From: an uncultured Acidobacteriia bacterium
GTDB taxonomy: Bacteria; Acidobacteriota; Terriglobia; Bryobacterales; Bryobacteraceae
Length of the DNA: 64,000 nucleotides
NCBI GenBank assembly: GCA_903828455.1
Contig: CAIKMJ010000069.1
Coordinates: 33,106 to 97,105, forward strand
Direction of reading: 5' to 3'
Shown: positions 46,186-57,057 of the stretch, piece by piece
Layout: each line of letters starts with the position of its first letter
Numbering within the stretch: the stretch's first letter is position 1
The notes under the pieces: generated by a model
The model's database searches: none
The model's input: only the letters and a program-made list of their open reading frames with translations
What the model was told of the DNA's origin: nothing
Position numbers and translations under genes: made by a program

Positions 46186-47361
46186 TCACGTACCCGGCGA
46201 GGGCGATGAATGCAGCGAACGGCCCACGCACCGGCGCAGTTCCGCGCAGAAACGCTCCTCGGAAAAACGTTCCGCTTGCCGCGCCGAAAATCGCCGCAGC
46301 TCGCCGGCGAGCGGGGCATCGTTCAGGACCCGGCCAATCCGCGCGGCGGCATCCTCCGCATCGCGGAACATCAGCTCCTCTCTGCGCCCCACAATCTCCA
46401 TCGGGCCGCCGGACCGGTGCACGAACACGATGCAGCCGGCGCGCTGCAATTCGGCCGGTGCGATGCCGAAATGCTCTTCCTCCATCGTGTGCAGTCCGTA
46501 ACGATGCCGCGCCACCTCCCGCACCAGCTGTTCGCGGGGAACGTCGTACAGGATCCGAAACCACGGCCGGGCGGCGGCGAGCGCCTCCATGCGCGCGGCG
46601 TAATCCGCCTGATGACGGTTCGAAATCAGCGTGAGCGAAATCTCGCCGCCCTGGCTGCGAACGCGATCCGCGATCTCCACCGCCATCTCCCAGCGCTTCA
46701 CGTGATGCATCCGGCCCAGCGCGACGATGCCCTCCACGCGCTCCTCCCACGGGACCGCCGGAAATCCTCCCGGCACCGGAGGATACACGATCTCGGCGCC
46801 CATCCCGTGAACGTGGCGAATCCGCGCCGCCACGAACTCCGAATTGGCCAGCGAAAGATTTCGCCGCAGCCCCTCCGGCGAGCCGCGCGAGATCCGCAGA
46901 CACAGCATCCGGTACGCGGCCAGCAGACCGGGGATGCGATGCACCGCGCTCAGTTCCACGTCGGGCCGCGGCAGATACGCCCACGGGTAATGCACGTACT
47001 GTATTCCTGGCCGCCCGAAATCGGCTTCGTTCTCGGTGCTGAGCAGCACGTCGAACCGCTCGGCGCGGTCCAGATCCTGTGCCCATCGCATGGTCACGCA
47101 CTGCCGCAACAGCGCGCCCTGCGTGGGGATGTGGCGCACAACTCCGCGCCACAGCGCGGGCGCGATGCGCACAGTGAAATCCTCCGCGCGCAGCGACGTT
47201 CCGAAGTTCCGGTTCACCGCCACGCGATCCACCGGCCCCAGCGTCCCCAGCGTGACATCGCAGTCGTCGCGCAACGCCTGCAGCGCCCACGCCGCAACGG
47301 CATTGCCCCCGCCCGCGGCATTCAGATACGGATGGGCGATCAGTACGCGTGGTCTGCTCAC
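46186..47361 (-). CDS. Alg11-like GT4 mannosyltransferase
   Basis: 391 residues from GTG 47361, which overlaps the upstream gene's stop as GTGA. The GT4 signature and Alg11-type blocks are: HPYLNAAGGG (10-19, Alg11 has HPYCNAGGGG), QYVHYP (121-126), NSEF and EIVYPP (173-195), YGLHTMEEEHFGI (288-300) and HRSGGP (315-320). The Glu in EHFG is the GT4 donor-binding Glu. Eukaryotic Alg11 adds the last two alpha-1,2-mannoses on the cytosolic face of the lipid-linked oligosaccharide. Here it may add sugars after the Alg1-like enzyme. It is the last gene of the ABC-Alg1-Alg11 operon. Donor and linkage are inferred. Confidence 0.85.
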   Translation of the reverse strand: MSRPRVLIAHPYLNAAGGGNAVAAWALQALRDDCDVTLGTLGPVDRVAVNRNFGTSLRAEDFTVRIAPALWRGVVRHIPTQGALLRQCVTMRWAQDLDRAERFDVLLSTENEADFGRPGIQYVHYPWAYLPRPDVELSAVHRIPGLLAAYRMLCLRISRGSPEGLRRNLSLANSEFVAARIRHVHGMGAEIVYPPVPGGFPAVPWEERVEGIVALGRMHHVKRWEMAVEIADRVRSQGGEISLTLISNRHQADYAARMEALAAARPWFRILYDVPREQLVREVARHRYGLHTMEEEHFGIAPAELQRAGCIVFVHRSGGPMEIVGRREELMFRDAEDAAARIGRVLNDAPLAGELRRFSARQAERFSEERFCAELRRCVGRSLHSSPSPGT

Positions 47362-48515
47362 GCTGCCCCCGTCAACACCGGCAGCACGGTGCTCCTCCAT
47401 TCCTCGCTCCAGGAACGCGACCATCGCTCGCCGATCGCGTTTCGCATCGCCGCCGCGACGCCCGGATCCGCGGCAATCCGCGCGAGCAACCCGGCCAGTT
47501 CCGCCGCCGTTCGAAACCGGAACCCCGTCACGCCATGCTCGATCTGCTCGCCGATGCTGCCGCCGTAATCGAACGCGCAGACCGGCACGCGGGCGCCGAA
47601 CAGATCCACAACCTTCATCGCCAGATCGAGACCCGAACTCGAGCGGTGCAGGCTCAGCCCCACCTCCGCGCGGCGAATCAGACCCCAATATTCGGCTGCG
47701 GGAAGAAAGCCCGTATCGTCGAGAATTCCCTTCGCACGCAGCCCGCGCAGCCGCGGCGCAAGTTCCGCGCGCTTCGGCCCTTCGCCCGTGATGTACACAA
47801 TGATGGCGCTGTCCGCCATCAGGTCCAGCGCATCGAGCAGCATTTCCATGTCCTCATCGGCGGTCCACCCGGCCGGGCACACCGCAATCACCCGGCGCGC
47901 GGACGCGTTGTCAGCGCCAACAGCGCCGCCATCGCCTTGCGCCGGAAGCAACGGCCTGTCGTACAGCACCTCGGCGCCGATGCCCCTGCGCCGGAGATCG
48001 TCCTGCATGGCGCGGGAGACGCAGAAATGCCGCGCCGCCATGCGCCCCGCGCGAAATTCGTACCAGCGCGACAAACGCACCAGCCAGTGCGCGGCTCCGA
48101 GCCGCAGCGCCAGCAGGGAAAAACCGTAATTGTGCCAATCCACAATCAGGCGCGCGCCGCTCCGTTTCGCCACCGCCGCCGCTGCCATCAGAGTGGGGAA
48201 TGAAGGCGGATTCTGCACCAGAATCGCGCGCGGTTTTTCCCGCAGCAGAGTGCGCAACAGGCCGGCGTAAAGCCGGCTCATTCTCAAACCCGCCTGCACG
48301 ATGAAGCCGATGCCGGAGGCTCCGCGCGGCGCGCTTCGTCCTCCTTCGAGGCACAGCAGCCGCACTCCGGCGGGCACTTCGAACCCGCGTCCGCGATAAC
48401 CGATCAGCACCACGGCGAATCCGCCCGCCGCCAGCTCGCGCGCGTGATTCAGCATCCGCGGACTGCGCGCCGGATCTCCCATCACCACAACCGCCACCAG
48501 CGCCCCCGCCTTCAT
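47358..48515 (-). CDS. Alg1-like beta-mannosyltransferase (GT33-type)
   Basis: 385 residues. Collinear blocks match eukaryotic Alg1 along the full length: GDPARSPRM (13-21), QNPPSFP (101-107), DWHNYG (126-131), WYEF with CVSRAMQDDL (151-174), WTADED (217-222), ITGEGP (242-247), SSSGLDLAMKVVDLFG (292-307) and EEWRSTVLPVL at the C-terminus. Eukaryotic Alg1 adds the first beta-1,4-mannose to Dol-PP-GlcNAc2. It lacks the N-terminal membrane helix of eukaryotic Alg1. It overlaps the ABC gene by 4 bases and the Alg11-like gene by 4 bases. Acceptor and donor (GDP-mannose) are inferred from the family. Confidence 0.9.
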   Translation of the reverse strand: MKAGALVAVVVMGDPARSPRMLNHARELAAGGFAVVLIGYRGRGFEVPAGVRLLCLEGGRSAPRGASGIGFIVQAGLRMSRLYAGLLRTLLREKPRAILVQNPPSFPTLMAAAAVAKRSGARLIVDWHNYGFSLLALRLGAAHWLVRLSRWYEFRAGRMAARHFCVSRAMQDDLRRRGIGAEVLYDRPLLPAQGDGGAVGADNASARRVIAVCPAGWTADEDMEMLLDALDLMADSAIIVYITGEGPKRAELAPRLRGLRAKGILDDTGFLPAAEYWGLIRRAEVGLSLHRSSSGLDLAMKVVDLFGARVPVCAFDYGGSIGEQIEHGVTGFRFRTAAELAGLLARIAADPGVAAAMRNAIGERWSRSWSEEWRSTVLPVLTGAA

Positions 48516-50209
48516 CGGCTCCCGATCGCCTCTTCACGCAGCGCTCCGTCCTCCAGCCGCCAGGCGCGCGAGGCATGGCGGATCGCCGCCGGATCGTGCG
48601 AGATCATCAGCACCGCCGGATGAAACGGCAGCCGCGCCAGATTGCCCAGCAGCATCGCGATGGCTTCTTCGTCGAGGTGATTGGTCGGCTCATCGAAGAT
48701 CAGAAAATCAGGCTGCCGCAGCAGCGCACGCGCCAGCACCAGCTTCTGCCGCTGCCCGCCGGAAAGCAAAATCCCGCTCTCGCCGATCTGCGCATCGAGC
48801 CCGCCGGGCAACCCCTCCACGAACGCGCTCGCGCCGGACCACTCCAGTGCCTGCCGGAGTTCGGCCGCGCCGTAAGCCGCCGGACCGTAGGTCAGGTTCT
48901 CGCGAATCGTTCCGGGAAACAGGAATGGATTCTGCGGCAGAATCGCCATCCGCCCGCGCAACGCCCGAATGTCGGCCTCTTCATACGGCACTCCGTTCAC
49001 GAAAAGACCGCCGCGCGACGGTCTGTAGAGCCCCGTGATCAGATGCCCGATAGTGCTCTTGCCCGCTCCGTTGGCGCCCGTCAGCGCAACGTGTTCGCCG
49101 CGCCGGATCGCGAACGAGGCCCCGCTCAGCACCGGCGTCGCCTCGCGGTAGCCAAACCACACATCGCGCAGCTGCACGCTCTCGATGGCACTCACCGCGA
49201 GCCGCCCCTGGTATGGCTCGCGCTCGCCAACGCGCAGCAGCGCCTCCAGTTCGCCAAACGATTCCAGCCCGCGCCGCAGCGGCGGAACGGAATCCACAAT
49301 GGACCTCACCTGCACCGCGAACATCGCAGCGGTTACATAAAAGACCATCACCTGGCCGCGCGTGGCATGCCCCGCCGCCACCGACCAGCCGCCGGCCAGC
49401 AGCGCCGCCAGCGTGCACGTCAGCAGCAGAAAGCCCTGCAGGATCTGCTGCGCGGCATCGAAGCGGTTCAGTTCCAGCGAGACCCCGCGCAGCTCACGGA
49501 TGTTGCTCTTCTGGCGCGCCGTTTCGAACTCTTCCGCCGCGTGCGCTCGCGTCAGCTCGAACGCCTGAATCATGAACCGCACGCCGCGGCTGAACGCTTC
49601 CCACGCCTGCCGTACGCGCTGCTGGCGCAGCCAGACATCCCGCTCCGTCGCGCGATTCACCACAAACAACACAGGCGCAACCACCGCCAGAATCACCGCG
49701 TAAACAGGCTCAATCCGCATCAGGATCCGGAAAAGGACCAGCACTCCGCACACGCCCGGCAGCATCTGCGTCGTCACCGCAATGTTCATCGCATCGATGA
49801 TGGAGGTCTCGTGCACCATCGTCAGATGAAGCTTCTCCACGTCGGCCTGCGTGTGAAAGGCGCGCGGCAGCGTGTAGAAGTGTTCGATCGCGCTCGCCCG
49901 CAGCCCCGCCACCACGTCCTGACTGAGGCGCAGCGCGGCGGTGCGGATCCACCACGCCACGAACAATCCCCCCACCTGCAGCGCCATCAACTGCGCCACC
50001 GCCACCCCGAAGGCCGCCATCGCCCCGGCGGGAAGCCCATGCCCTTCCGGCAGAATCTCTTCGAAAATCCGCCGCAGGATGGCCGCGCCCGGCACCCAGG
50101 CGAACGACTGCGCCAGTCCCGCCAGCGTCAGCAGAAGCAGCGAAAGCCGGTGATCCCGAAAGCAGGCGGCATAAGCCCGCCAGCTGCCGCGATTTGCAGG
50201 GAGGTTCAC
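48512..50209 (-). CDS. ABC exporter half-transporter, candidate lipid-linked oligosaccharide flippase
   Basis: 565 residues with a GTG start. An exporter-type six-helix membrane domain (about 20-310) is followed by the ATPase domain: Walker A TGANGAGKST, signature LSGGQRQKLVLARAL, Walker B FLIFDEPTNHLDEE and H-loop MISHDP. One half-unit implies a homodimer. In the Campylobacter pgl system an ABC protein of this shape (PglK) flips the lipid-linked glycan. The operon position suggests the same job. A peptide or drug exporter is the alternative. No Shine-Dalgarno is visible. Confidence 0.88.
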   Translation of the reverse strand: MNLPANRGSWRAYAACFRDHRLSLLLLTLAGLAQSFAWVPGAAILRRIFEEILPEGHGLPAGAMAAFGVAVAQLMALQVGGLFVAWWIRTAALRLSQDVVAGLRASAIEHFYTLPRAFHTQADVEKLHLTMVHETSIIDAMNIAVTTQMLPGVCGVLVLFRILMRIEPVYAVILAVVAPVLFVVNRATERDVWLRQQRVRQAWEAFSRGVRFMIQAFELTRAHAAEEFETARQKSNIRELRGVSLELNRFDAAQQILQGFLLLTCTLAALLAGGWSVAAGHATRGQVMVFYVTAAMFAVQVRSIVDSVPPLRRGLESFGELEALLRVGEREPYQGRLAVSAIESVQLRDVWFGYREATPVLSGASFAIRRGEHVALTGANGAGKSTIGHLITGLYRPSRGGLFVNGVPYEEADIRALRGRMAILPQNPFLFPGTIRENLTYGPAAYGAAELRQALEWSGASAFVEGLPGGLDAQIGESGILLSGGQRQKLVLARALLRQPDFLIFDEPTNHLDEEAIAMLLGNLARLPFHPAVLMISHDPAAIRHASRAWRLEDGALREEAIGSR

Positions 50210-50221
50210 GCGAAGAACTAG

Positions 50222-50228
50222 TAGAATA
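50222..50228. promoter_or_regulatory. Possible shared divergent -10 element
   Basis: TAGAATA lies in the 24-base gap between two divergent start codons. On the plus strand TAGAAT (50222-50227) ends 6 bases before the TTG at 50234. On the minus strand the same bases read TATTCT, 13 bases before the GTG at 50209. No clear -35 was found on either side. Confidence 0.3.
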
Positions 50229-50233
50229 ACGGA

Positions 50234-51355
50234 TTGGCTTCAACTTTAGCCAGAAGGCGCGTGGCCGTCGCGGGTGGCGGCACCGCCGGGCACATCCTCA
50301 CGGCTCTCGAAATCCTGTCGGCGTACCGGAAAGAATTCGCCTGCGAGGGCCTCTTCATCGGCAGTGAAACCGGCTTCGAATCGCGCCTCGTGCTGCACAG
50401 CGGGGAGCGCCTCGAACTGGTCCCGGCGCTGCCGTGGGCGCGACAGAAGCTGCCGGCGCGAATGCAGGCCATCGCGTCTCTCCTGCCCGCGTTCCTCGCG
50501 GCGCGGCGCATTCTGCTGCGCGAGCGTACGGAACTGGTCATCGGCGCCGGCGGCTATGCCTCGCTGGCACCCTGCATCGCCGGCTGGACGCTCGGTCTTC
50601 GCGTCGTCATTCACGAAGCGAACGCCGTTCCCGGCCTCGCCAACCAGTTTCTGGCGCGCTTCGCCACTCTCATCTGCGTCGATTCGGAGGAAACCGCGCG
50701 CCACTTCGGCGCCAAACGCGTGGCGGTCACGGGAACACCCTGCCATCTGCCGGCATCCGGCGCCCCACCCGCCGCGGATGCCGCCGCGGCCACGCCGTTT
50801 CGCATTCTCGTCCTCGGCGGCTCGGAAGGCTCGCCCTGGCTGAACCGGCAAGTGCCCGCGCTGCTGGCCGAACTGCGGCGCCGCCCGGCGAATTTCACCG
50901 TTCACCACCTCACCGGAATGGAGGCTCCCGGCGCAACGCAGGCCGCTTATGACAGCGCCGGCGTTCCCGCTCGCGTGGAAGGCTGGGTCGACGACATGGC
51001 CCCGGTCTATGCCGCCGCCACACTCGCCATCGCCTGTCCCGGAGCCCGCACGCTGGCCGAACTCTCCGCCGCCGGAATTCCCGCGCTGCTTTCGCCGCTG
51101 CCCGGCATCGCGCACGGACACCATGCGGCGAATGCGCAGCTCTATGCCGCCCGCACCGGCGCCAGATTCGTCAGCGAAGAAGAGTGGGACATCGCCGATC
51201 TCGCCGGCTGGATCGAATCGCTCTTCGCGGCACCCGAAAGGCTGCGGGCCATCGGCGAAAGAGCGCGCGCCTGCGCCATGACCGGAGCGGCGCGGGCAAT
51301 CGCGCGCGAGTCCGAACAGCTGTTCAGCAACGCATCGCAGGGTAGCGCCAAATAG
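50234..51355 (+). CDS. MurG-like (GT28) glycosyltransferase
   Basis: 373 residues from TTG 50234. Family motifs include VAVAGGGTAGHI (N-terminal acceptor/membrane side), GGYASLAPCIAGW, HEANAVPGLANQFLARFA and GGSEGSPWLN at the second Rossmann domain. The donor-binding loop reads CPGARTLAELSAAG. MurG normally has an Arg or Gly-Ser context there, so this copy is diverged. It sits outside any cell-division cluster and directly before the STT3 gene. A second HexNAc transfer on undecaprenyl-PP, like eukaryotic Alg13/14, is plausible. The true MurG role is the alternative. A GTG at 50261 is another start. Confidence 0.85.
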   Translation: MASTLARRRVAVAGGGTAGHILTALEILSAYRKEFACEGLFIGSETGFESRLVLHSGERLELVPALPWARQKLPARMQAIASLLPAFLAARRILLRERTELVIGAGGYASLAPCIAGWTLGLRVVIHEANAVPGLANQFLARFATLICVDSEETARHFGAKRVAVTGTPCHLPASGAPPAADAAAATPFRILVLGGSEGSPWLNRQVPALLAELRRRPANFTVHHLTGMEAPGATQAAYDSAGVPARVEGWVDDMAPVYAAATLAIACPGARTLAELSAAGIPALLSPLPGIAHGHHAANAQLYAARTGARFVSEEEWDIADLAGWIESLFAAPERLRAIGERARACAMTGAARAIARESEQLFSNASQGSAK

Positions 51356-51438
51356 TCCACGGGCGCTGCGCTTCGAAGCGCGTCCGTCGAGGCCCGTCCG
51401 GCGAGGCGGGTTCGGCTCTGTCTCTTATGATTGTTCCA

Positions 51439-53574
51439 ATGCCGAAGCGGCTGCCCACCATCGCGGTTTTGCTCTGCATCCTGCTCGCGTTCGCGCTTCG
51501 CGTCATCCCCGCGTACCCGGCCGTCTTCACCTCGCACGGCGTGAGCTTTGAGGAGGCCGACGCGTGGTTCCACATGCGCACCGTCCACAACCTGATGGCG
51601 CATTTCCCCCGGCGCAGCGAATTCGACCCATACGCAGCCTTCCCCGGAGGCGAAACCATCTCCACCGGACCGTTCTGGGACTACGCGATCGGCACCATGG
51701 CCTGGCTTGCCGGCGCCGCTTCCCCCACCGGCCGCACCGTCGATCTTACCGGCGCGTGGCTCCCCGCTCTTCTCGGCGCGCTCTTCCCGGCGCTCGTCTT
51801 CATCCTGACCAGGCGTCTGTTCGATACCGTCACCGCGCTGTTTGCCGCCTTCTGGGTGGCCATCGTTCCCGGGACGTTTTTGTGGGTGAGCCACCTCGGC
51901 ATGGCGGATCATCACGCGGCCGAATCTTTCACCAGTCTTCTTACGCTGCTCGCACTTTGCGCCGCGGCCGAATCGCGCGGCAGTCAGCGCTGGATTCTGG
52001 CCGCGCTGTCCGGCGTGGCCCTCGCCGCCTATCTCAGCACCCGGGCCGCCGGCATCTTCGTACCCGCCATCGTCGCCGCGGCTGCGCTGCTGGAACCCGA
52101 TCTCGCGGCGCTCGCGGCGGCGGCCGTGGGGATCGCGGGGCTTCTGTTCATGGCGGCAGGCAGTGCGAGCCCCTGGGCACACTTCACGATCCTGTCGCTC
52201 GCAGCCGGCCTGTGCGTCACCCTGCCGCTCGCCGGGCTGAACCGGATGGCCGTGCAGCGGAACTGGTCGCGAAAGCACATGTACGGCGTGGCGGCCCTGG
52301 TCGCGTTCGCGGCCGCCGCGATCCTGGCGTTGACGGAAGGCGCAAAAATCGGCGCTCTGACCGAAGTGATCGGCCACTACCTGCCCTGGCGCCACGACCG
52401 CGCCATCGCCGCCACCATCATCGAACTGCAACCGCTCTGGCTGGCCCCGCCGGGCGGCTTTCGCTCGCTCTTCAATCAGTTCGGAGCAGCCTGGCTCCTC
52501 GCGATCCCGGCGCTCGGCGCCGTCATCCGGATGGCGTGGCGCGCCCGCCGTCCCGCTCTCACGCTCTTCGCCGTCTGGAGCCTCGTCATGCTCACCGGCG
52601 TACTTCTCCAGTTGCGTATGGCGGCGTATACAGGTCCGGTAGCAGCGATTCTGGCGGGCGCGGCTTCGGCATGGATCGTGCGGCGCGTGCCGCGCGGCGC
52701 CATCGCTGCAGCGGCGGCGCTGCTCCTGATCGGATCGGCCGCCGCGATCCCCGCCGGCTTCGCCCAACTGCGCACCAGCATGGGCCCCGACCCCGACTGG
52801 TGGGCCGCTCTCGACTGGCTGCGCGGCAATACCCCCGAACCCATGGGCGACCCGCTCGCCTGGTCCCGCTGGTGGCCGCGCCCCGCGCCAGAGGTGGCCT
52901 TCGCGTATCCGCCGTCGGCGTACAGCATTCTGACCACCTGGGACAAGGGCTGGTTCATCACCGGCCTCGCGCGGCGTATCCCCGCTTCGAACGGCGAACA
53001 GAACGGCGCCGCCGACGTCGCCAGGTTCCTGAGCGAAACCGACCCCGAAGAAGCCCTGCGCAACATCCGGCAACTCGGGGCACGCTACGTCATACTGGGC
53101 CCGCGCCAGGTTACCGTAGAGTTCCCTTCGCTGATCCGCACCGCGGGGCGCGACCTCGACCGCTACTCGCGGATCTTCGATCTGCCGCTCCCGGGCGGCA
53201 AGCCGGCTCCCACGCGCTTCTTCTTCCCGGCCTTTTACCGCACCATGGCCGCGCGGCTCTACCTGTTCGATGGACGGCGCGTCGATACCAGCCAGGGCGT
53301 CGTCGTGCTGCTGACGCAGCCCGCCCCGTCGGCGGAGGGCGCGCCGAACGAGACCATTCAGTCCGTGCGCCGCTTTGCCTCCCAAAAGCAGGCCGAGGAG
53401 TGGATGGCGCAACATCCCTTCGAGAGCGCCCATCTGGCCAGCGCCGATCCGGCATCGAGTTGCGTCGATCTGGAAGAACTCCCCTGGCTCCGTCGCGTCT
53501 TCGCGTCGCGGGACGAACGAATTGCCGGAAACCCGCAGCCAGCCGCCGTGAAGATCTTTCAACTGGCGAAATAA
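51439..53574 (+). CDS. STT3-family oligosaccharyltransferase (PglB/AglB-like)
   Basis: 711 residues from the ATG at 51439; the ATG at 51427 is part of a TATGAT -10-like box. About 11-13 helices precede a C-terminal domain. Catalytic landmarks: EADAWFHMR in the first external loop (metal Asp41), GMADHHAAE (Asp157), IIELQPL in the fifth external loop (Glu329, like PglB Glu319), RMAAYTG and W-AALDWLRGNTP. The STT3 WWDxG motif reads TWDKG (501-504 for WDKG), with the first Trp lost. FYRTMAARLYLFDG near the end matches bacterial and archaeal OSTs. It transfers lipid-linked glycan to Asn in N-x-S/T on the periplasmic side. Confidence 0.92.
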   Translation: MPKRLPTIAVLLCILLAFALRVIPAYPAVFTSHGVSFEEADAWFHMRTVHNLMAHFPRRSEFDPYAAFPGGETISTGPFWDYAIGTMAWLAGAASPTGRTVDLTGAWLPALLGALFPALVFILTRRLFDTVTALFAAFWVAIVPGTFLWVSHLGMADHHAAESFTSLLTLLALCAAAESRGSQRWILAALSGVALAAYLSTRAAGIFVPAIVAAAALLEPDLAALAAAAVGIAGLLFMAAGSASPWAHFTILSLAAGLCVTLPLAGLNRMAVQRNWSRKHMYGVAALVAFAAAAILALTEGAKIGALTEVIGHYLPWRHDRAIAATIIELQPLWLAPPGGFRSLFNQFGAAWLLAIPALGAVIRMAWRARRPALTLFAVWSLVMLTGVLLQLRMAAYTGPVAAILAGAASAWIVRRVPRGAIAAAAALLLIGSAAAIPAGFAQLRTSMGPDPDWWAALDWLRGNTPEPMGDPLAWSRWWPRPAPEVAFAYPPSAYSILTTWDKGWFITGLARRIPASNGEQNGAADVARFLSETDPEEALRNIRQLGARYVILGPRQVTVEFPSLIRTAGRDLDRYSRIFDLPLPGGKPAPTRFFFPAFYRTMAARLYLFDGRRVDTSQGVVVLLTQPAPSAEGAPNETIQSVRRFASQKQAEEWMAQHPFESAHLASADPASSCVDLEELPWLRRVFASRDERIAGNPQPAAVKIFQLAK

Positions 53575-54945: not shown

Positions 54946-57057
54946 ATGCTGGTCTGGTCCGGCACTTTCCATAACGTCTTCCACTACGACGATTTCGCCA
55001 ACATCGTCAACAACCGGTTCGTCCACGAATTCGGCTCCATTCCGCGTTTCTTTTTCGATCCGCGGGCCTTCAGCGAGGCCTCGGAATCGGCCGCCTGGCA
55101 CCCGCTTCTTTCAACCCTCTGGACGGTGGATTACTGGGCCGCGCGCGGCGCCGCGCCGCAGGTCTTCCTCATCGATTCGTTCGTCTGGTTCGTGCTGCAG
55201 CTGATTTTTCTTTACACGCTGTTCCGGCTGATTCCGGGCGGCAACAAGATCTCGGCGCTGGCGGGCGCGGCGCTCATCGGGCTGCATCCCATGTCGTCGG
55301 AAACGGTGAACTACATCTCGCAGCGGGGCGGAATCCTCGCGGCGCTCGGCGTTGAGGCCGGCCTCGCCATGTGGATCTTCTGGCCACGCATGGTTCCGGC
55401 ACGCATCGATCTGAAAGCCGGGGGGATGCCGAAGTCGAAGTCCCACGCGCGGCGAAAGCAGCTGCAACCCATTGTCGATAAGGTTTGGTCGGCGCTGCTC
55501 CGCGTTCCCGCACCCTACCTTTTCCCGGTGGTGGTGGCGATGCTGGCGTCGCCGCAGGCCGGGGCGTTCGCGCTGATCCTGCTCGCCTACGTGAAGCTCA
55601 TCGACAAGGAACGCTCTCCGCGGGAAATTATGCCGGCCGGTGTTGTCTGCGGCCTGCTCTGGTTTGTTCCGCTCGCCGTGACGTGGCGCTACGGCAGCGC
55701 GATCCGGCCCGCGGTGTGGCAATACTGGGCCACGCAGCCGCTGGTCACGGTGCGCTATTTCCTCGCGTTCCTCTGGCCCGGCCACCTGTCTGTCGATACC
55801 GGCCTCGAACCGGTCTCCTCCATCTTTTCGCCGCTCGCGCTGGCGGGCTATGCGGGGCTGGCAGCATTGATCGTCGGAGCGGTAAAGCTTTCGCGCCTCG
55901 ACACCTGGCGCACCACAAGCTTTGGCCTGTGGTGGTTTCTGCTGGCGCTGGTGCCGGACGCTCTGGCGCCGCAGCGCGAGGTGGAAGCGATTCCGCGCAT
56001 GTATGTGGCGGCCATCGGCCTCGCTTTCGCGGCAACGCGAGCCGGCGACGTGTTGCTCGCACGCGCCCGGCAGGCGGAGAAGACGAAGCTTTCGGTAACC
56101 GCGGCGGCTATTGCCGGCGGCGTCGTACTGCTGGTGGCGCTCGGCTACTCCACCTACCAGCGCAACACTGTCTGGGCGTCGGAGGAACTGCTCTGGCACG
56201 ACGCCGTGGAAAAGAATCCCGTCAACGGCCATGCTCTGACCCGGTACGCCGAAGTCATCAGCGGGTCCGGCGCCGACCTCACCACCGCCTACGGCATGAT
56301 GAAGGAAGCCGCCCGCGTGTCGCCGCAGGATCCCGCCGTGGAGGTTGCCCTCGCACTCACCGCGCAGCGCCTCGGCCAGCGCGCCGAAGCAGACGCTCAC
56401 TTCAAACGCGCCATCGCCGTCAAGCCGGACTGGGCCAACAGTTACGGCGCCTACTCCCAGTGGCTGCTCGCTCAGTTGCGCGAACCCGAAGCCGTGGACA
56501 ACGCAAAGAAGGCGCTGGGCCTTCGCTTCGACAGCGCCGACGCGCGCCATACGCTGTTCGACGTCTACATCCGGCACCACGACTGGGACAACGCGCTGCG
56601 CCTCGCCGATGAGACGCTGCGGCTCTACCCGGACGACATGGATGCCGAACGCACGGTGAACGTCGCCACCGTGGCCGAAAACGAACTGAAGCAGAGCGAG
56701 GCCGACGCGCCCAAACGCGGCAGCGACGGCTACCTCGCCCTGTCCGTTGTTTACTACAAGAACGGCAAATACGAAGACTGCATCCGCGCCGCGAAGGAAG
56801 CCCTGCGGATCAGTCCCAACCTCGCCGAAGCATGGTCGAACCTGGCCGCCGGTTACCACGAAATGGGCCGGATCGACGATTCCGTGGCCGCCGCGAAAGA
56901 GGTGGTTCGGTTAAATCCCCGCCTTCTCAACGCCCAGAAGAATCTGGACGCCTTGCTCGCCGAACAGGCCGCGCTGCGCGCCAAAGCAGCCGCGGGATCG
57001 TCGGCCGCCAAACAGCCGCCGGCAAAGCAGTCCGGAAAGCCGCGCCAGAAGCACTAG
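54946..57057 (+). CDS. TMTC-like membrane TPR protein (GT-C type)
   Basis: 703 residues from the first ATG. The frame extends upstream to 54859 and codes a plausible membrane helix (FVLIWLSLGIIAATLM), so the true N-terminus may start at ATC 54862. The N-terminal half is polytopic, with FHYDDFANIVNN in the first loop (Asp-Asp 15-16), WHPLLSTLW, GLHPMSSETVNYISQRG and SIDxG-like segments seen in TMTC-type O-mannosyltransferases. The C-terminal half (about 400-680) has TPR units: PAVEVALALTAQRLG, WANSYGAYSQWLLAQ and PNLAEAWSNLAAGYHEMG. It may be a GT-C glycosyltransferase with a TPR substrate arm, or a non-enzymatic relative. Confidence 0.83.
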   Translation: MLVWSGTFHNVFHYDDFANIVNNRFVHEFGSIPRFFFDPRAFSEASESAAWHPLLSTLWTVDYWAARGAAPQVFLIDSFVWFVLQLIFLYTLFRLIPGGNKISALAGAALIGLHPMSSETVNYISQRGGILAALGVEAGLAMWIFWPRMVPARIDLKAGGMPKSKSHARRKQLQPIVDKVWSALLRVPAPYLFPVVVAMLASPQAGAFALILLAYVKLIDKERSPREIMPAGVVCGLLWFVPLAVTWRYGSAIRPAVWQYWATQPLVTVRYFLAFLWPGHLSVDTGLEPVSSIFSPLALAGYAGLAALIVGAVKLSRLDTWRTTSFGLWWFLLALVPDALAPQREVEAIPRMYVAAIGLAFAATRAGDVLLARARQAEKTKLSVTAAAIAGGVVLLVALGYSTYQRNTVWASEELLWHDAVEKNPVNGHALTRYAEVISGSGADLTTAYGMMKEAARVSPQDPAVEVALALTAQRLGQRAEADAHFKRAIAVKPDWANSYGAYSQWLLAQLREPEAVDNAKKALGLRFDSADARHTLFDVYIRHHDWDNALRLADETLRLYPDDMDAERTVNVATVAENELKQSEADAPKRGSDGYLALSVVYYKNGKYEDCIRAAKEALRISPNLAEAWSNLAAGYHEMGRIDDSVAAAKEVVRLNPRLLNAQKNLDALLAEQAALRAKAAAGSSAAKQPPAKQSGKPRQKH

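What the first reader, a model, noticed from the sequence alone, without database searches (positions are those of the whole stretch)
46186..53574. Compact N-glycosylation locus with eukaryote-like Alg1 and Alg11, a MurG-like transferase, an ABC exporter and STT3
Five consecutive genes encode most steps of lipid-linked oligosaccharide assembly, flipping and transfer. The ABC, Alg1-like and Alg11-like genes overlap by 4 bases each. MurG-like and STT3-like genes run the opposite way from a 24-base gap. The order of activities matches the eukaryotic pathway (Alg13/14, Alg1, Alg11, flip, STT3) better than the Campylobacter pgl or archaeal agl sets I know. A phosphoglycosyltransferase for the first sugar is not in the window. 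Functions are inferred from family motifs and context.
Basis: partly seen in the sequence, partly recalled or inferred. Interest (0 to 1): 0.93.

Follow-up and report, generated by a model that had tools for sequence, protein, structure and literature searches.

The report
Bacterial N-glycosylation locus with eukaryotic-type Alg1
Some Acidobacteriota carry, in one gene neighbourhood, a member of the eukaryotic Alg1 family of sugar-adding enzymes and an archaeal-type oligosaccharyltransferase, a set predicted to build a eukaryote-like sugar chain on a lipid and attach it to asparagines of exported proteins, which could help to trace where part of the eukaryotic pathway came from.

Summary
The "Alg1-like" protein is a true Alg1-family (GT33-type) enzyme: a profile of yeast-type Alg1 proteins scores it 202 bits (E 7e-61) and other bacterial copies 131-323, against 20 for the next protein. 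STT3 is archaeal AglB-type and keeps the catalytic residues, but has TWDKG where AglB has WWDYG. The MurG-like protein belongs to a second MurG clade; the genome also has an ordinary murG, and no Alg14 was found. The ABC exporter is confirmed. "Alg11" is not: the protein is only a GT4 enzyme. The set recurs: 8 of 8 Alg1-bearing genomes among 150 of the order, and 10 of 16 among 396 of the phylum, also have STT3 (about 1.1 expected in each); two other genomes hold all five genes together. One family with Alg1 alone is the main counter-example. Predicted function: assembly, flipping and Asn-transfer of a GlcNAc2-Man-type glycan; no chemistry was tested. New variant of a known kind, of high interest.

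The parts
46186..47361 (-).
   Evidence: PF00534 2.4e-10, PF13692 4.3e-9; no ALG11_N at E<=10; a homologue near Alg1 in 12 of 22 other Alg1 genomes
47358..48515 (-). Alg1-family (GT33-type) glycosyltransferase, 385 aa; predicted beta-1,4-mannosyltransferase
   Evidence: yeast-type Alg1 profile 202 bits, E 7e-61; 29% identity to yeast ALG1 over 406 aligned columns, E 1e-45; invariant columns
48512..50209 (-). ABC exporter half-transporter (membrane part plus ATPase), 565 aa; predicted lipid-linked glycan flippase
   Evidence: PF00005 1.3e-31, PF00664 3.4e-14; MsbA and PglK models hit below their cut-offs; near Alg1 in 13 of 22 other Alg1 genomes
50210..50233 (.). 24-base gap between the two divergent gene groups, if the TTG start of the MurG paralogue is right
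   Evidence: sequence
50234..51355 (+). MurG paralogue (GT28), 373 aa; predicted to add the second GlcNAc
   Evidence: TIGR01133 213.6 bits, cut-off 250.25; ordinary murG on contig C77 at 292 bits; separate clade
51427..53574 (+). AglB/STT3-type oligosaccharyltransferase, 715 aa, with TWDKG in place of WWDYG
   Evidence: PF02516, PF22627; TIGR04154 345.7 bits, cut-off 450; A. fulgidus AglB best in PDB by sequence and by fold (low-confidence model); motifs

Best explanation
The locus encodes an Alg1-family glycosyltransferase, a second MurG, a GT4 glycosyltransferase, an ABC exporter and an AglB-type oligosaccharyltransferase, which together are predicted to build a GlcNAc2-Man-type glycan on a polyprenyl diphosphate, flip it and attach it to asparagines of exported proteins. 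Inferred order: a sugar-1-phosphate transferase encoded elsewhere (best candidate the WecA-like protein on contig C46) would load GlcNAc-1-phosphate onto undecaprenyl phosphate; the MurG paralogue would add a beta-1,4-GlcNAc; Alg1 would add a beta-1,4-mannose; the GT4 enzyme would extend the chain; the ABC exporter would flip it; the AglB-type enzyme would transfer it to Asn. Family identities, gene order, co-occurrence and kept catalytic residues are shown. Sugars, carrier, flipping and acceptor sites are inferred.
For: Alg1: a profile from 24 relatives of yeast ALG1 scores the window protein 202 bits; 0 of 120 proteins of the GT4 homologue set reach E 10 and the next non-Alg1 ORF scores 19.9 bits. 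The 24 Alg1 ORFs in the fetched loci score 131-323 bits. STT3: archaeo_STT3 E 6e-103; D45, D161-H162-H163 and the Glu of TIIEL match AglB motifs; the 17 best PDB fold matches come from oligosaccharyltransferase entries, though the model is poor. Co-occurrence: 8 of 8 Alg1 genomes in the order sample, 10 of 16 in the phylum sample. All five genes together in G090 and G132; four of the five in G085, G064, G386 and G532; a PF00953 gene near Alg1 in 7 of 22. Second MurG in 10 of 17 genomes with both Alg1 and STT3 and in 1 of 17 without Alg1, in its own clade and keeping His20, Glu128, Asn130 and Glu276 in the copies readable there.
Against: No activity or glycoprotein data. The window's STT3 lacks the first Trp and the Tyr of WWDYG (TWDKG), a motif of the Ser/Thr pocket. 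Six genomes of one family have Alg1, no STT3 found and no partner gene nearby, so Alg1 can serve something else. Seven of 17 genomes with both Alg1 and STT3 lack the second MurG, and 0 of 40 have an Alg14 match, so the chitobiose step is unexplained there. The first-step enzyme is not in the locus, and the genome has six PF02397 matches as other candidates for it. G024 has a second MurG without Alg1; G466 has an AglB-clade STT3 without Alg1. 12 of the 20 STT3 genomes in the order sample have no Alg1.
Confidence: 0.72

Rival explanations
1. The genes make a lipid-linked surface glycan (capsule or lipopolysaccharide type) that does not end up on protein asparagine; STT3 would transfer it to another acceptor.
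For: Generic GT4 and MsbA-type ABC proteins are common in such loci (recalled); the matches here are generic. TWDKG weakens the case for normal sequon recognition. Alg1 stands alone in one family.
Against: The catalytic Asp, DHH and Glu are kept in the 36 sequences of the AglB-like part of the STT3 tree. No other gene fits between the five genes.
Confidence: 0.15
2. The pathway works as proposed, but Alg1 has changed sugar or linkage, so the glycan is not GlcNAc2-Man. (Not exclusive of the best explanation's last steps.)
For: About 29% identity to yeast ALG1; no activity data. The solitary family shows the enzyme occurs without the other parts.
Against: Invariant columns shared by bacterial and yeast-type sequences run along most of the protein, e.g. 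DWHN and SxSxxDLxMK, which suggests a kept substrate.
Confidence: 0.2
3. The MurG paralogue is a spare cell-wall MurG and not part of the pathway.
For: It is MurG family, 213 bits, and keeps the catalytic residues; one paralogue, in G132, passes the curated MurG cut-off.
Against: It tracks Alg1 within the order (8 of 8 against 1 of 12 chosen genomes without Alg1), lies near Alg1 in 7 of 22 other Alg1 genomes, and has Ala for the second-last Gly of GGTGGH in 7 of 7 readable copies, Gly in 29 of 29 ordinary MurG.
Confidence: 0.1

Closest known systems
Eukaryotic dolichol pathway, Alg7/Alg13-Alg14/Alg1/STT3
   Same: Alg1 belongs to the same family; predicted order of steps; STT3 superfamily
   Different: MurG paralogue and no Alg14 match; GT4 enzyme is not Alg11; ABC exporter; AglB-type STT3; Alg1 lacks the N-terminal extension, hydrophobic by eye, of the yeast-type proteins
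Archaeal AglB pathways
   Same: STT3 is closest to archaeal AglB
   Different: Alg1 and a MurG paralogue are part of the set; Agl24 of Sulfolobus (PMC8993221, passages seen) is only distantly related to MurG and was put in its own family, GT115
Campylobacter Pgl pathway
   Same: GT4 enzymes, ABC exporter and STT3 in one locus (Pgl layout recalled)
   Different: PglK model far below cut-off (132.8 against 1000); PglB ranks below AglB and STT3 entries in the fold search; no Alg1 or MurG member in Pgl (recalled)

Membership tests
Alg1 / GT33 | profile match to eukaryotic Alg1, well above other GT4-like enzymes | tested here: met
   202 bits against 19.9 for the next protein; reference set only of yeast type
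Alg1 / GT33 | columns invariant across yeast-type and bacterial members | tested here: met
   37 invariant columns in 18 sequences (two rows cut at the N-terminus), 26 in 62
Alg1 / GT33 | beta-1,4-mannosyl transfer to GlcNAc2-PP-lipid | not testable with these tools
   needs an enzyme assay
AglB/STT3 oligosaccharyltransferase | two DxD-type motifs and the TIxE glutamate | tested here: met
   D45; D161-H162-H163; TIIEL
AglB/STT3 oligosaccharyltransferase | WWDYG Ser/Thr-pocket motif | tested here: inconclusive
   TWDKG in the window, xWDKG in L033/L058 and L057; 31 of 36 sequences of the same part of the tree keep WWDxG
AglB/STT3 oligosaccharyltransferase | curated TIGR04154 cut-off of 450 bits | tested here: not met
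   window 345.7 bits, L036 309.3; the G386 homologue reaches 521.7
MurG (cell wall) | curated TIGR01133 cut-off of 250.25 bits | tested here: not met
   213.6; separate clade; one paralogue, in G132, passes at 261.6
Alg13/Alg14 | PF08660 Alg14 domain | tested here: not met
   0 of 40 genomes, window's own included
Alg11 | PF15924 ALG11_N domain | tested here: not met
   typed yeast ALG11 266 bits; window protein and five homologues no match at E<=10
PglK flippase | NF050066 cut-off of 1000 bits | tested here: not met
   132.8 bits

The most novel reading that the evidence does not exclude
Acidobacteriota hold a prokaryotic branch of Alg1, an enzyme whose origin has been called unknown and possibly a eukaryotic innovation, inside a working N-glycosylation pathway that makes the eukaryotic GlcNAc2-Man core with a repurposed MurG and an archaeal-type oligosaccharyltransferase. 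Eukaryotic Alg1 may descend from such a bacterial enzyme, and the window's own subclade glycosylates through an altered sequon pocket (xWDKG).
Probability: 0.35. Interest if true: 0.95.

Novelty: new variant of a known kind. Interest (0 to 1): 0.86.

Why it matters
Lombard 2016 (PMC4973528, section 11 read) could not determine the closest prokaryotic relatives of Alg1 and suggested that it may be a eukaryotic innovation. Here is a bacterial Alg1 family, linked by position and co-occurrence to an AglB-type oligosaccharyltransferase and a MurG paralogue. If the activities hold, a bacterium makes the core of the eukaryotic N-glycan, which bears on where the eukaryotic pathway came from and could supply bacterial enzymes for making eukaryote-type glycoproteins. 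The six-genome family with Alg1 alone and the xWDKG variant of STT3 are separate, directly testable questions.

Tried and rejected
Rejected: 'Alg11' as a family name. Alg13/14 as identity of the GT28 protein. PDB sequence search for Alg1: no match with the single protein at E<=1, six generic GT4-type chains with the profile. The good Alg1 model (pLDDT 93.5) is closest to BshA and other GT4-type enzymes, which does not separate Alg1 from GT4. The STT3 model is poor (pLDDT 43.3, four sequences); its fold search (TM-scores of the 17 best 0.32-0.44) is weak support only, and rank 18 is the C-mannosyltransferase DPY19. The first MurG tree had wrong reading frames for some rows and was redone. Rows: 8 of the 11 second-MurG genes and 29 of the 40 ordinary ones were used (G081's, with an internal stop, was left out; others were not fetched). 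In one search, L058 was left out as the same contig as L033, the duplicate views L106, L110 and L118 were dropped, the short pieces of G082 (L048) and G090 (L027) were not used, and of the 29 phylum-sample STT3 genomes G154 and G169 were not placed. Two rows of alignment A1 (L042, L043) lack their N-termini because I gave short coordinates; A1 was the query. Scripts that only waited. Polls before a result was ready. Paper searches (10 of 10 used): among the papers listed I saw none on Alg1 or N-glycosylation in Acidobacteriota; five lists were cut (20 of 36, 20 of 353, 20 of 82, 10 of 17, 10 of 25), and subscription journals and preprints are not held. PMC7203096: passages seen, nothing used.
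Full report
WHAT IS THERE. The window is part of a 97-kb contig of a 4.4-Mb genome (98.6% complete). Named relatives are two Acidobacteriia MAGs, plus a Methanoregula MAG for STT3, and Bryobacteraceae among the few named protein hits, with one Binataceae. Five genes occupy 46186-53574: three on the minus strand with 4-base overlaps (ABC exporter, Alg1, GT4 enzyme) and two on the plus strand (MurG paralogue, STT3), separated by 24 bases if the TTG start is right. Families are clear for all five.

ALG1 IS REAL. A profile of 24 of these (18 from named yeasts, six whose listing shows no organism) scored the window protein 202 bits (E 7e-61); none of 120 proteins of the GT4 homologue set scored at E 10 or better, and the next non-Alg1 ORF scored 19.9 bits. 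Among the fetched loci, 24 Alg1 ORFs scored 131 to 323 bits; two of these are the same gene (L062, L071) and two are pieces on separate contigs of G394 (L104, L105); a further piece beside the G082 gene scored 12.6. JGI's own name for many of the listed bacterial homologues is beta-1,4-mannosyltransferase, so automatic annotation already hints at it. In a FastTree tree of 40, the 18 yeast-type proteins form one clade (1.0). Of 21 bacterial proteins, 20 group with weak support (0.41) and G472 stands apart, so the order of the bacterial and yeast branches is unresolved; no bacterial protein falls inside the yeast clade. Only yeast-type sequences stand for eukaryotes, so the direction of transfer is open.

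STT3 IS AGLB-TYPE. It matches archaeo_STT3 at 345.7 bits, below the curated 450; the G386 homologue passes at 521.7. A. fulgidus AglB is the best PDB match. D45, D161-H162-H163 and the TIxE glutamate are kept; the pocket motif is TWDKG instead of WWDYG. PMC8342417 (passages seen) describes these motifs and assigns WWDYG, with DK/MI, to Ser/Thr binding; the DK/MI motif was not checked here. The xWDKG form also occurs in L033 (the same contig as L058) and L057; genome G064 has a WWDYG copy too (L034). A four-sequence model is poor (pLDDT 43.3), yet its 17 best fold matches come from AglB, STT3-containing or PglB entries.

MURG PARALOGUE. The genome has an ordinary murG at 292 bits on contig C77. 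Of 40 chosen genomes, 11 have a second MurG at E 1e-25: 10 of 23 with Alg1 and 1 of 17 without (G024). Within the order it is 8 of 8 against 1 of 12. Eight paralogues and 29 ordinary MurG fall into two clades (support 1.0 and 0.999, midpoint root); the second-last Gly of GGTGGH is Ala in all 7 paralogues readable there, while His20, Glu128, Asn130 and Glu276 are kept in the copies readable there. None of the 40 genomes has an Alg14 match.

GT4 ENZYME AND ABC. The GT4 enzyme lacks ALG11_N. Typed yeast ALG11 matches it at 22 bits; its best homologue (L101) reaches 39, and an ordinary GT4 protein of the same genome 14.6, so a loose tie to Alg11 exists but no membership. The ABC protein resembles MsbA and PglK without reaching either cut-off.

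CO-OCCURRENCE. Order sample: STT3 in 20 of 150 (E 1e-20), Alg1 in 8 of 150, both in 8, expected 1.07, P 2.4e-8; 12 STT3 genomes have no Alg1. Phylum sample: Alg1 in 16 of 396, STT3 in 29 of 396 (E 1e-8), both in 10, expected 1.17, P 5.2e-9. The samples share genomes, the window's own included, and P ignores shared ancestry. The six Alg1 genomes without STT3 are all of one family (f49) and show no partner gene nearby, three of them near contig ends. In the STT3 tree (53 sequences, midpoint root) 11 phylum-sample genomes fall in the AglB-like part, 10 of them with Alg1 (exception G466); 31 of 36 sequences there keep WWDxG, against 2 of 17 in the divergent part. Around Alg1 in 22 other genomes: GT4 12, ABC 13, MurG paralogue 7, STT3 7, PF00953 gene 7; all are 0 in the six f49 genomes. 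All seven PF00953 genes pass the Pfam cut-off, and in G386 PF00953 and ABC domains lie in one 984-residue ORF. G472 holds Alg1, MurG paralogue, PF00953 gene and STT3 together. Two of these PF00953 proteins hit the WecA model below its cut-off, and the one tested against PDB matches MraY best and human DPAGT1 weakly; the window genome's own WecA-like protein on contig C46 is 37-38% identical to two of them. The genome also has six PF02397 matches, none in the window.

READING. The simplest account is a polyprenyl-diphosphate pathway ending in Asn transfer: WecA-like, MurG paralogue, Alg1, GT4, ABC, AglB. Shown: families, positions, co-occurrence, kept residues. Inferred: sugars, carrier, flipping, protein targets. 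Against: TWDKG, the f49 family, absence of the second MurG in 7 of 17 genomes with Alg1 and STT3, G024 and G466, and an unassigned first step.

KNOWN OR NEW. Lombard 2016 (PMC4973528; abstract, sections 11 and 14 and passages seen) reports Alg1 of unknown origin and a few bacterial STT3 homologues placed within euryarchaea; the word stem acidobacteri does not occur in its main text. The Agl24 paper (PMC8993221, passages seen) gives an archaeal enzyme, distantly MurG-like, for chitobiose. In ten paper searches I saw nothing listed on this pathway in Acidobacteriota, within an open-access library and partly cut lists. I file it as a new variant of bacterial N-glycosylation with a true Alg1 member, not as a eukaryotic pathway.

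Noticed in passing
window 54946-57057 (+): TPR protein whose first 420 residues, hydrophobic to the eye, match no Pfam family at E<=10; looks like TMTC-type membrane O-mannosyltransferases from memory, untested.
   Followed up: partly
L033/L058, L057 and the window STT3: A small STT3 subclade carries xWDKG in place of WWDxG; G064 also has a WWDYG copy.
   Followed up: partly
L091, L092, L095, L096, L082, L103: Six genomes of one family carry Alg1 without STT3 or second MurG; the neighbours scanned in two of them are redox genes.
   Followed up: partly
L164 (G024 contig C77): Second-MurG gene on a 4.3-kb contig in a genome where no Alg1 was found.
   Followed up: partly
L115, L119-L125, L127-L133: Divergent STT3-like proteins without the WWD motif, in genomes without Alg1.
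   Followed up: no
L093 6406-9360 (+): One open reading frame in G386 carries both a PF00953 sugar-1-phosphate transferase domain and an ABC exporter: a possible fusion of the first and the flipping step.
   Followed up: no
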